The notes beneath the pieces are model-generated. The model was not told where the DNA came from. It saw only the letters and a program-made list of their open reading frames with translations, and did no database searches. This document shows positions 60,715 to 63,273 of a stretch of DNA of 64,000 nucleotides, piece after piece. A program made the translations under genes and the position numbers. The DNA comes from Nitrospinaceae bacterium (GTDB lineage Bacteria; Nitrospinota; Nitrospinia; Nitrospinales; Nitrospinaceae): assembly GCA_028278405.1 (NCBI GenBank), contig JANQEK010000004.1, positions 1 to 64,000 of the forward strand, given 5' to 3'. Every line of letters starts with the position of its first letter. Positions within the stretch are counted from its first letter, which is position 1.

Positions 60715-60954
60715 AATACTTCCAGCCAAAATAGTTCCGGGCCTTGCCCGGTCCTGCGCGACAAGTCCTTATTTTATGGTAGCCAAGAAGCCAAGAGGTG
60801 TCAATGAAGGGACCCGAGCAATTGGAAGCTAAGCGCTGGAAGTAGGGGAATAGGCAAATTTTAAAAATAGTCAGGGTTGTTAATTTATTGGATCTCTGAA
60901 ATAATCGCAAACAATCCTAGCCTATTCGCTCAAATTCTTAAAAGGTGATCAGCT

Positions 60955-63198
60955 GTGAACGATGAGAACCCTAAACCTATTTCCCCAAGGAAATCTATAC
61001 CGAATTGGGGAAGAAAAACAGCTAAGGCACTCTTTATATTAACTCGCGAGGAACAGATAGCTGAGACCAGTGAAATTCCAAACCTCCTTTCCCAAGACGA
61101 ACTGGTAAAAAAATTAACCAATGGAGAATCCCTCGAAGGTGCGGAGATCGGTGATATCAATTTATCCGAAAAAACATTTAAAAAAGGGTTGGATTTTTCT
61201 GGCTCCATAATTCACGGGAATATCAACTTTAGATCCTGCAAATTTATAGGAGAAATCGAGGTAAAGTTTATCGCGACCAAATTTGTAGGTAGGGCTTGGC
61301 TGGATTTCTCCAATGCAAAATTTTTAAATAAGTCTGTGGTGGATTTTTCTGGAGCTCAGTTTTCAGTTTCTGCTCTGTGCGACTTTTCCTTAACTCAGTT
61401 TTCAGACGAAACCTCGGTTGACTTCTGCACATCCCCATCAACAAATGAGGCTGCCCAATTTTCAAACGGTGCATGGCTAGATTTTACCGAGGCGAAATTT
61501 TCGGGAAAGGCTGGAGCATATTTTTTTGAAGCTCAATTTTCGAATAATACCGCTGCAGTTTTTTTTAATACCAAATTTTTGGGTGAGGCCAAGGCAATAT
61601 TTAACATGGCAAAATTCTCTGAAAATGCCAAAGCAGATTTCCGGATGACTCAATTTAGAAAAAAATCTTTGGCATCATTTGACCAGACTGAATTCTCGGG
61701 AAAGGCCGAAGCAGATTTCTCTAATACTCAGTTTTCAAATAAAGCTCAAACAAGTTTCTATATGGCAAATTTTTCAGATAAAGCACAAGCAGTTTTCTAT
61801 GGAGCCAAATTTTCTAGAAAAACTAAAGCAAATTTTTCTAGCACCGAATTCTCTGATACAACTCAGTTAAATTTCTCAAGATCAGAATTTATTGGGCAAT
61901 CTATTGTGAAGTTTTCCAAAATTAAATTTTCAGACAGAACTAAATCAACTCTTCTCGGTGCTCATTTTTCAGGTAAAACTCGAGCAGATTTTTCTAATGC
62001 AAAGTTTACCGGCGAAGCTGCAGCTGTAATCTCCATGGCGCATTTTTCTGATGAGGCCGGAGCGATTTTCACTATGGCTCATTTTTCTGACAAGGCTAAG
62101 ATAAGTTTTACAAAAGCTAAATTTTCTAAAAAAGCCTGGATATTTTTCGGATTTACAAATTTTCGTAATGGCGCTATAGGGGATTTTTCAAGGGTAGAAT
62201 TTTCAGATATGACTGAGGCAAGCTTCTCGAATTCAGAATTTATTGATAATAGTCAATTTATATTTAAGACAAGAGCCCTGTCATCCTTAGGGAACTATCA
62301 ATTTAGAGACTTACATTGCTCAGAAATTTCGATCATTCGCTTCGAATCAGTAAATTTAGGCAGCGTATCATTTTTTCAAACAGATATCGAAAATTTCACA
62401 TTTAAAAGCGTCTCGTGGACAATCAAAAAAAAAGGAGGAATCTCACGATTCGTGCTAAAGGATGAGGATTTGTTTGAAACGATTAAAGAAAGCAAATTAA
62501 AAAAAATAAATAGAAATAAAACTCTTAAAAAAAAGGAAAAAAAAGCAGAAAAATGGAAGTTAAAAATCGAATATTACCGTCAAGTAGAAATTTTGTACCG
62601 GCAATTGAAACGCAATTATGAAGACAAACGTGATTATCACGGAGCGGGGGACTTTCATTTCGGCGAGCTGGAAATGCGCCGTAAGCAAAAAACGCTATTA
62701 GGACAATGGACTTCTCTGATCCTGCCGTATCGTCTATTTTCCGGCTATGGAGAAAAATGGGGCCGGGCTTTTCTCTGGTTTTTTTTCGCGGTATTCCTGT
62801 TCTCCGTCCTCAATCTGTATTGGATTCATCCTAAACCGACTGGCAAGCAAACCGAGGCAGCCAAAACTACCGAAGATCAAACAGCGGCGGCCAAACCTAA
62901 CAGGAATTCTCCCAAAATCGAAAAGCAAACGATATCAAAAACGGAGACAACTCAACCTCCCTCGAGTCCTTCCAAAACTTGGGAACAAATGCATTGGGCA
63001 GGTCAGTTAGTAGAATCCTTTCTGTTCACTTTTAAATTGATGACTTTTCAACGCGACCTGAAGTATGAAGCTGTCAATGAACTGGATAAGGTGTGGCGGG
63101 GTCGTTTCGGCAGATTTGTTCTCAACCTCGAATTCTTGATCGGTCCCGCCCTGATCGCCTTGATGTTATTGGCTATCCGGCGCCAGTTCCGGCGATGA
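60955..63198 (+). CDS. 13-residue-repeat (pentapeptide-like) solenoid with channel-like membrane C-terminus
   Basis: 747 residues. After a ~75-residue N-terminus come about 25 tandem units of 13 residues (about 75-430), such as ADFSNTQFSNKAQ, TSFYMANFSDKAQ and AVFYGAKFSRKTK. Phe recurs with 5- then 8-residue spacing, so this is a variant of pentapeptide-repeat beta-solenoids. A Lys-rich coil (about 500-545), a helical RQVEILYRQLKRNYEDKRDY segment, a membrane helix (GRAFLWFFFAVFLFSVLNLY, about 603-622), a Pro/Thr/Lys-rich linker, a pore-helix-like VESFLFTFKLMTF and a last helix (LNLEFLIGPALIALMLLAI) follow. Related proteins couple pentapeptide repeats to two-helix ion channels; here the GYG-type filter is missing. 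The repeat part is AT-rich, the end is not. Confidence 0.8.
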   Translation: MNDENPKPISPRKSIPNWGRKTAKALFILTREEQIAETSEIPNLLSQDELVKKLTNGESLEGAEIGDINLSEKTFKKGLDFSGSIIHGNINFRSCKFIGEIEVKFIATKFVGRAWLDFSNAKFLNKSVVDFSGAQFSVSALCDFSLTQFSDETSVDFCTSPSTNEAAQFSNGAWLDFTEAKFSGKAGAYFFEAQFSNNTAAVFFNTKFLGEAKAIFNMAKFSENAKADFRMTQFRKKSLASFDQTEFSGKAEADFSNTQFSNKAQTSFYMANFSDKAQAVFYGAKFSRKTKANFSSTEFSDTTQLNFSRSEFIGQSIVKFSKIKFSDRTKSTLLGAHFSGKTRADFSNAKFTGEAAAVISMAHFSDEAGAIFTMAHFSDKAKISFTKAKFSKKAWIFFGFTNFRNGAIGDFSRVEFSDMTEASFSNSEFIDNSQFIFKTRALSSLGNYQFRDLHCSEISIIRFESVNLGSVSFFQTDIENFTFKSVSWTIKKKGGISRFVLKDEDLFETIKESKLKKINRNKTLKKKEKKAEKWKLKIEYYRQVEILYRQLKRNYEDKRDYHGAGDFHFGELEMRRKQKTLLGQWTSLILPYRLFSGYGEKWGRAFLWFFFAVFLFSVLNLYWIHPKPTGKQTEAAKTTEDQTAAAKPNRNSPKIEKQTISKTETTQPPSSPSKTWEQMHWAGQLVESFLFTFKLMTFQRDLKYEAVNELDKVWRGRFGRFVLNLEFLIGPALIALMLLAIRRQFRR

Positions 63199-63273
63199 CT
63201 GCCCCCTTGTGGATAACCGGGGAGTCTGATATGATCGCCTCATACACCAATTTCAACCCTGTCAGGGTGTTTT

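What the first reader, a model, noticed from the sequence alone, without database searches (positions are those of the whole stretch)
60955..63198. 13-residue solenoid with a channel-like end lacking a selectivity filter
Roughly 25 units of 13 residues with Phe at 5+8 spacing differ from the regular 5-residue ladder of pentapeptide proteins. The C-terminus resembles two-helix channel domains (TM, pore helix, TM), but has TFKLMTFQRD where TxxTxGxGD is expected. The long repeats, AT-rich DNA and hinge-like Lys linker suggest a mechanosensing or binding scaffold with a degenerate or novel pore.
Basis: partly seen in the sequence, partly recalled or inferred. Interest (0 to 1): 0.57.

Follow-up and report, generated by a model that had tools for sequence, protein, structure and literature searches.

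The report
Beta-solenoid protein with filterless channel domain
A bacterial gene encodes a long coiled protein arm joined to what looks like the pore of a potassium channel without its potassium filter, one of a scattered and apparently undescribed group of such proteins.

Summary
The ORF (60955-63198, 747 aa) carries about 27 units of 13 residues with Phe spaced 5+8 (46 F-F pairs at distance 13; shuffles average 8.4, maximum 18). Its C-terminus has TM1, pore helix and TM2, with TFQRD where a K+ channel has TxGYGD.

The repeats are pentapeptide-type (Ala at i-2 of Phe) stretched from the commoner 5+6. Relatives mix 5+6 and 5+8 and score as Pentapeptide_3; the window protein scores nothing. AlphaFold2 gives a confident beta-solenoid.

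The C-terminus is homologous to K+-channel pores. A 10-member filterless profile matches intact-filter pentapeptide channels from the same phylum (E 4.6e-20; transmembrane part alone 1e-9). 59 of its best 60 PDB sequence hits, and all 50 structural rows shown, are pore-loop channels. Filterless relatives span seven phyla. A Lys/Arg sits at or beside the filter Tyr/Gly in 28 of 42 filterless rows.

The gene is an AT-rich insertion between ribF and tatA, absent from that site in six same-genus genomes. Function is inferred: a solenoid-controlled membrane effector or scaffold whose pore, if open, should not be K+-selective. The closest characterised kind is HalA of Hailong phage defence, but the HalA test fails here. 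Mechanosensing is unsupported.

The parts
60955..63198 (+). whole ORF, 747 aa, GTG start
   Evidence: purifying selection seen in the relatives L029/L030 (dN 0.31, dS 1.96)
60940..60948 (+). AAAAGGTGA, ribosome-binding-like stretch upstream of the GTG
   Evidence: sequence; inference
61228..62265 (+). 13-residue (5+8) Phe repeats, residues 92-437, about 27 units; the modelled solenoid spans residues ~60-500
   Evidence: periodicity; Ala at i-2; AF2 pLDDT mostly 85-97
62473..62691 (+). helical linker, residues 507-579 (with YRQVEILYRQLKRNYEDKRDYHGAGDFHFGELEMRRK)
   Evidence: helices 507-520, 526-557, 561-579; conserved across the family; 87% identity L029/L030
62755..62823 (+). TM1, residues 601-623, directly after SGYGE
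   Evidence: conserved SGYGE
62824..62994 (+). Lys/Thr/Pro-rich loop, residues 624-680, low confidence, longer than in relatives
62995..63042 (+). pore helix, residues 681-696
   Evidence: (pLDDT 86-89)
63043..63057 (+). TFQRD, residues 697-701, at the position of the K+ filter TxGYGD
63091..63192 (+). TM2, residues 713-746, with conserved GPxLIALMLLAIRRxFRR end
60806..63219 (.). approximate extent of the stretch absent from the ribF-tatA site in same-genus relatives

Best explanation
This is a membrane protein with a cytosolic pentapeptide-type beta-solenoid (13-residue units, most likely two per 26-residue coil), a conserved helical linker and a pore domain of the K+-channel fold that has lost (or never had) the K+ selectivity filter. 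It belongs to a widespread, patchily inherited family in which the filter TxGYGD is replaced, most often by T-x-x-Lys/Arg. Shown by sequence and model: anatomy, homology to K+-channel pores, absence of the filter, conservation of that absence. Inferred: it assembles as a tetramer like other channels of this fold, with solenoid arms in the cytosol; the fast-evolving, length-variable solenoid binds a ligand; the conserved linker and TM2 pass that event to the membrane domain. The likeliest output is opening of a pore that is not K+-selective (non-selective, anion, or basic-residue-gated), used as a stand-alone stress or defence effector.
For: Homology: profile-profile A6 (10 filterless) against A5 (3 intact-filter pentapeptide channels, same phylum) E 4.6e-20; TM-only score 54 (E 1e-9) against at most 18.8 in 60 column shuffles; 59 of the 60 best PDB sequence hits of A6 are K+ channels (KcsA, Kv4, K2P), best E 0.03. 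Fold: AF2 of the C-terminus, built from filterless rows only, gives TM1, pore helix, TM2; 49 of the 50 Foldseek rows shown are K+ channels, all E >= 0.54; the 50 VIA-align rows shown are all pore-loop cation channels, top SthK Z 11.7, rmsd 2.7, 92 aa; MthK pore Z 10.8, rmsd 2.5, 82 of 82 residues. Conserved filter loss: K/R at +2..+4 of the filter block in 28 of 42 filterless rows against 0.077 per residue around it. Selection: L029/L030 identity is linker 87%, TM2 88%, pore and filter 72%, solenoid 44%; dN 0.31, dS 1.96. Patchy: 15 of 297 genomes of L034's phylum, 2 of 95 of L033's, 82 of 72,556 plasmid records. Solenoid model mostly pLDDT 85-97.
Against: The window protein and its three nearest relatives alone match the intact channels only weakly in the TM part (E 0.0046 over 27 columns), so the link runs through the wider family. 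Foldseek E-values are all above 0.5 and a helix hairpin is easy to match. Tetramer, conductance and ligand are untested. No conserved neighbour or signal-making partner was seen at the loci read, unlike Hailong. 14 of 42 filterless rows have no basic residue in the block. The defence role rests on distant kinship to HalA and on patchiness.
Confidence: 0.5

Rival explanations
1. Non-conducting pseudo-channel: the pore fold survives only as a tetrameric membrane anchor that displays four solenoid arms as a binding scaffold.
For: The filter is absent in all 42 filterless rows aligned and the pore-loop region varies freely in one branch; no partner gene is conserved.
Against: A mere anchor would not be expected to keep TM2 (88%) and the pore/filter segment (72%) far better than the solenoid (44%) in L029/L030, nor a recurrent basic residue at one spot.
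Confidence: 0.32
2. Ordinary pentapeptide-repeat protein with an unrelated two-helix membrane anchor; the channel likeness is chance.
For: Pfam Ion_trans_2 does not match the window protein even at E 1-10; some of the wider family carry quite different second segments (TPFSW types L006, L008, L012, L017; TM-only E 0.37).
Against: all point to the same fold and family, and TxGK/TxGR rows (L054, L055, L066, L073, L076) bridge TxGYG and TLLK/TLQR.
Confidence: 0.08
3. Mechanosensor: the solenoid arm acts as a spring gating a pore.
For: Long elastic-looking repeat and a channel fold.
Against: Nothing specific supports it: no mechanosensitive-channel family appeared in the listed rows, and repeat number varies greatly among relatives (5+8 units 4 to 21 in the window-type four).
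Confidence: 0.04
4. Decaying copy of a K+ channel gene that lost its filter by drift.
For: AT-rich, strain-specific gene.
Against: Open over 747 codons; relatives keep the same anatomy without the filter; dN/dS about 0.16 in L029/L030, with dS near saturation.
Confidence: 0.02

Closest known systems
HalA, effector of the Hailong anti-phage system (NCBIfam NF051894; Tan et al. 2025, doi 10.1038/s41586-025-09058-z, not held here)
   Same: A curated HalA model matches the intact-filter sister L094 over pentapeptide repeats, linker and channel (2.4e-10, residues 252-521) and, weakly, the filterless L076 over linker and pore (1.7e-3). PMC13275509 (passage read) calls HalA an ion channel blocked by poly-dA adducts of HalB.
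   Different: The window protein has no HalA hit; 0 of 76 genomes of the phylum pass the cut-off; no HalB-like gene next to it (neighbours ribF and tatA); no filter. That HalA itself has a K+-type filter is recalled only.
2TM potassium channels (Ion_trans_2, PF07885; KcsA, MthK)
   Same: TM1, pore helix, TM2 fold; sequence profile similarity.
   Different: No TxGYG; no Pfam match for the window protein; cytosolic pentapeptide-type solenoid joined by its own linker.
Pentapeptide-repeat channels with intact filter (L020, L021, L023; L093 Aeromonas caviae; L094, L099 haloarchaea)
   Same: Solenoid, YRxLK...E linker, GYGE-like motif and 2TM pore.
   Different: TLGYGD, TIGYGD or TLGLGD filter; N-terminal Cys/His knuckle in those whose N-terminus was read; mostly regular 5-residue repeats in L020, L021, L023.
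Pentapeptide_3 repeat proteins (PF13576)
   Same: Phe repeats with Ala at i-2; relatives score above the cut-off.
   Different: 5+8 spacing instead of 5+6 or 5+5; the window protein is not recognised.

Membership tests
K+ channel (2TM/P, Ion_trans_2) | TM1, pore helix, TM2 arrangement | tested here: met
   AF2; VIA-align (MthK pore 82 of 82 residues, Z 10.8, rmsd 2.5)
K+ channel (2TM/P, Ion_trans_2) | selectivity filter TxGYG/TxGFG | tested here: not met
   TFQRD in its place; alignments
K+ channel (2TM/P, Ion_trans_2) | match to Pfam PF07885 | tested here: not met
   (L020, L021, L023 do match)
K+ channel (2TM/P, Ion_trans_2) | sequence homology of the pore domain | tested here: met
   through the wider family; weak with the window-type four alone
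K+ channel (2TM/P, Ion_trans_2) | tetramer and K+ conductance | not testable with these tools
   needs purification and electrophysiology
Pentapeptide repeat protein | Pfam Pentapeptide-family match | tested here: not met
   no such hit at E up to 1; relatives met
Pentapeptide repeat protein | small residue at i-2 of a buried Leu/Phe | tested here: met
   Ala at -2 of 23 of 52 periodic Phe, 0 of 5000 shuffles as high
Pentapeptide repeat protein | uninterrupted 5-residue spacing | tested here: not met
   5+8 spacing
Pentapeptide repeat protein | right-handed quadrilateral beta-helix | tested here: inconclusive
   fold search lists tailspike and pectate-lyase-like beta-helices (Sf6 tailspike Z 23.2, rmsd 3.1, 322 aa); an unlisted family is not excluded
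HalA (Hailong) | NF051894 above its cut-off of 250 bits | tested here: not met
HalA (Hailong) | adjacent HalB nucleotidyltransferase | tested here: not met
   neighbours are ribF and tatA

The most novel reading that the evidence does not exclude
A large, overlooked family of HalA-like membrane effectors has rebuilt the K+-channel filter around a conserved Lys/Arg. In the tetramer a ring of four positive charges at the filter would make the pore a built-in plug or an anion-permeable gate, opened when the cytosolic solenoid meets its ligand. If so, ion selectivity has been changed naturally within one scaffold, and the TxGK/TxGR rows record steps between TxGYG and TLLK/TLQR.
Probability: 0.2. 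Interest if true: 0.75.

Novelty: new variant of a known kind. Interest (0 to 1): 0.52.

Why it matters
The K+ filter is among the most conserved motifs in biology. A widespread natural family that keeps the pore fold, TM2 and the coupling linker but replaces the filter, often with a Lys/Arg, offers a direct test of what the channel fold can do without it. If these are membrane effectors related to HalA, they would also extend a recently described kind of phage defence. In the library searched no paper was found that describes the filterless group; subscription papers are mostly not in it.

Tried and rejected
Whole-protein family scans gave nothing useful; weak Hyphal_reg_CWP and CBM_6 matches of the repeats were set aside as repeat likeness. 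phmmer of the window protein against the PDB gave only chance-level hits. The A2 search of the 77 genomes was run twice with different limits; the second added nothing. Filterless relatives were not found in the phage collection. Neighbour genes were read by eye for a shared partner at 14 related-loci loci and 6 loci of G099, and as annotations at a few plasmid loci; none was seen; no PADLOC scan of neighbours was made. HalA was not among the PDB rows shown, which does not show that its structure is absent. PMC8145042 was searched for passages on membranes and channels: 'channel' does not occur in it; HglK is the bacterial membrane PRP in the passages shown. PMC7159879 and PMC12419801: passages only. 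PMC13275509: passages only.

The claim that the 13-residue repeat is unique was rejected: a Yimella plasmid protein has 16 units of 5+8 against 1 of 5+6, in another architecture, and L076 has 10 against 2 (listing).

Rows dropped before the 48-row alignment and the 28 of 42 count: of 50 profile hits, 44 passed a length limit; L025, L032, L051, L052, L062, L069, L072, L074 and L077 were on my list of truncated or poor rows, and after both filters 41 were left, to which 7 plasmid-collection proteins were added. Of those dropped, L074 (TMGK) would have counted for the basic residue. The sample was drawn with profiles made from the window family, so the count leans to its kin. Alignments differ by one residue on whether the basic residue faces the first filter Gly or the Tyr (my reading of the TxGK rows).

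Full report
OBSERVATION. The ORF is at the stated coordinates and is open for 747 codons. In residues 76-440, 46 Phe pairs lie 13 apart, with 23 at distance 5 and 24 at distance 8; 2000 shuffles average about 8.5 and never pass 18. About 27 units run from residue 92 to 437. Only a short stretch is still a DNA repeat, so the copies are diverged.

THE REPEAT. No Pfam, NCBIfam, PHROG or PADLOC model recognises the protein. Ala stands two before 23 of 52 periodic Phe (0 of 5000 shuffles), the pentapeptide-repeat signature. Wider relatives mostly use 5+6 (11-residue) spacing and score as Pentapeptide_3. The three nearest relatives, L028, L029 and L030, mix 5+6 and 5+8 units (6/4, 5/10 and 4/8). The 13-mer is therefore most simply a pentapeptide-type repeat lengthened in every second face (inference). 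AlphaFold2 gives a solenoid mostly at pLDDT 85-97. VIA-align puts it near tailspike and lyase beta-helices (Sf6 tailspike Z 23.2, rmsd 3.1, 322 aa, similar residue span), which fits a coil of about 26 residues, two units per turn (inference). Foldseek superpositions were poor, and the solved pentapeptide fold is neither shown nor excluded. By sequence, the family profile does find Qnr-type pentapeptide proteins (best E 1.2e-4).

THE C-TERMINUS. Nearest relatives occur in three other genomes of the phylum (Nitrospinota), with 46-51% identity over linker and membrane domain. Proteins of the same phylum with regular pentapeptide repeats carry the same linker and an intact filter: L020, L021 and L023 (TLGYGD), which match Ion_trans_2; they occur in 3 of 77 genomes. 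The ten-member filterless profile matches them at E 4.6e-20; with the shared linker cut away the score is 54, against at most 18.8 in 60 column shuffles. The window-type four alone give only E 0.0046 in that test, so the wider family carries the link. Independently, 59 of the 60 best PDB sequence hits are K+ channels (best E 0.03). A model built from filterless sequences alone superposes on pore-loop cation channels, although each Foldseek E-value is weak.

THE MISSING FILTER. The block that replaces TxGYGD reads TFQRD here, TLQK or TLQR in the nearest relatives, and TLLKPD, TLLKPY or TLLKPT in four named bacteria (L031, L033, L034, L037). It reads TLGK, TLGR, TIGR, TFGK or TIGK in genomes of L034's phylum, six copies of the family being found in one of them, G099. 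A Lys or Arg lies at +2..+4 in 28 of 42 filterless rows, against 0.077 per residue around it, where about 9 rows would be expected (rows are related, so this is not a probability). 14 of 42 lack it. The tree of 48 C-termini, whose named filterless rows carry labels of seven phyla, keeps the intact-filter group together (100/99) and the window type together (100/98), but it is unrooted and deep forks are open; which state is ancestral is not shown.

EVOLUTION AND SETTING. In six same-genus genomes ribF and tatA (identified) flank the same site. Three are empty (31-45 bp between aligned flanks) and three carry a similar gene of the UbiA family (one of them identified). The window's gene is AT-rich (0.39 against 0.54) and has no relative in the seven same-genus genomes searched, so it was probably acquired. 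The family is patchy: 15 of 297 genomes in L034's phylum and 2 of 95 in L033's. It is carried on plasmids (82 of 72,556 records, mostly Streptomyces). In L029/L030 the solenoid diverges (44% identity) while linker (87%), TM2 (88%) and pore segment (72%) are held. No shared neighbour was seen by eye at 14 related-loci loci and 6 G099 loci.

FUNCTION. Shown: anatomy, homology, conserved absence of the filter, selection on linker and TM2. Inferred: tetramer, cytosolic solenoid sensing, signal to the membrane. HalA of Hailong is the nearest characterised kind: its model matches the intact-filter L094 at 2.4e-10 and the filterless L076 at 1.7e-3. HalA is described as an ion channel blocked by DNA attached to HalB (PMC13275509, passage; the primary paper was not held). 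The window protein fails the HalA test, so it may work like HalA but is not filed as one. A non-conducting scaffold remains a serious rival.

VERDICT. A real feature, a new variant of a known kind: a stretched pentapeptide-type solenoid fused to a K+-channel-fold domain without its filter, representing a wider filterless family for which the searches made here found no description.

Noticed in passing
window 60768-60790 and the ribF-tatA site in L079-L084: The ribF-tatA gap is an insertion spot in this genus: empty, a UbiA-family gene, or the window gene. A short repeat (core CTTATTTYATRGTAGCCAAGAAG) lies there, and in L080-L082 BLAST finds similar short copies near both ends of the UbiA insert.
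   Followed up: partly
L027:3334-6411 (IMG/VR contig): A pentapeptide channel-like gene lies between two ORFs that match successive parts of one terminase large subunit (phrog_2 250-434 and 474-598), as if inserted in a phage packaging gene; its C-terminus matches phrog_15350 of unknown function.
   Followed up: partly
L101:1850-3262 (Yimella plasmid): A different architecture (hydrophobic N-terminal segments, no channel end) with 16 units of the same 5+8 spacing; Pfam gives TibC_1st and Pentapeptide_3.
   Followed up: no
L006, L008, L012, L017 (Nitrospinota): A second Nitrospinota type: 13-residue repeats, the same kind of linker, and TPF/SPF sequence where the filter would be; its TM part shows no channel similarity by itself.
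   Followed up: partly
L031, L033, L034, L037, L027, L117-L122 N-termini: Many wider-family members start with a Cys/His knuckle (ending C-I-x-H-S/N...DK) shared with intact-filter channels; the window-type proteins lack it.
   Followed up: no
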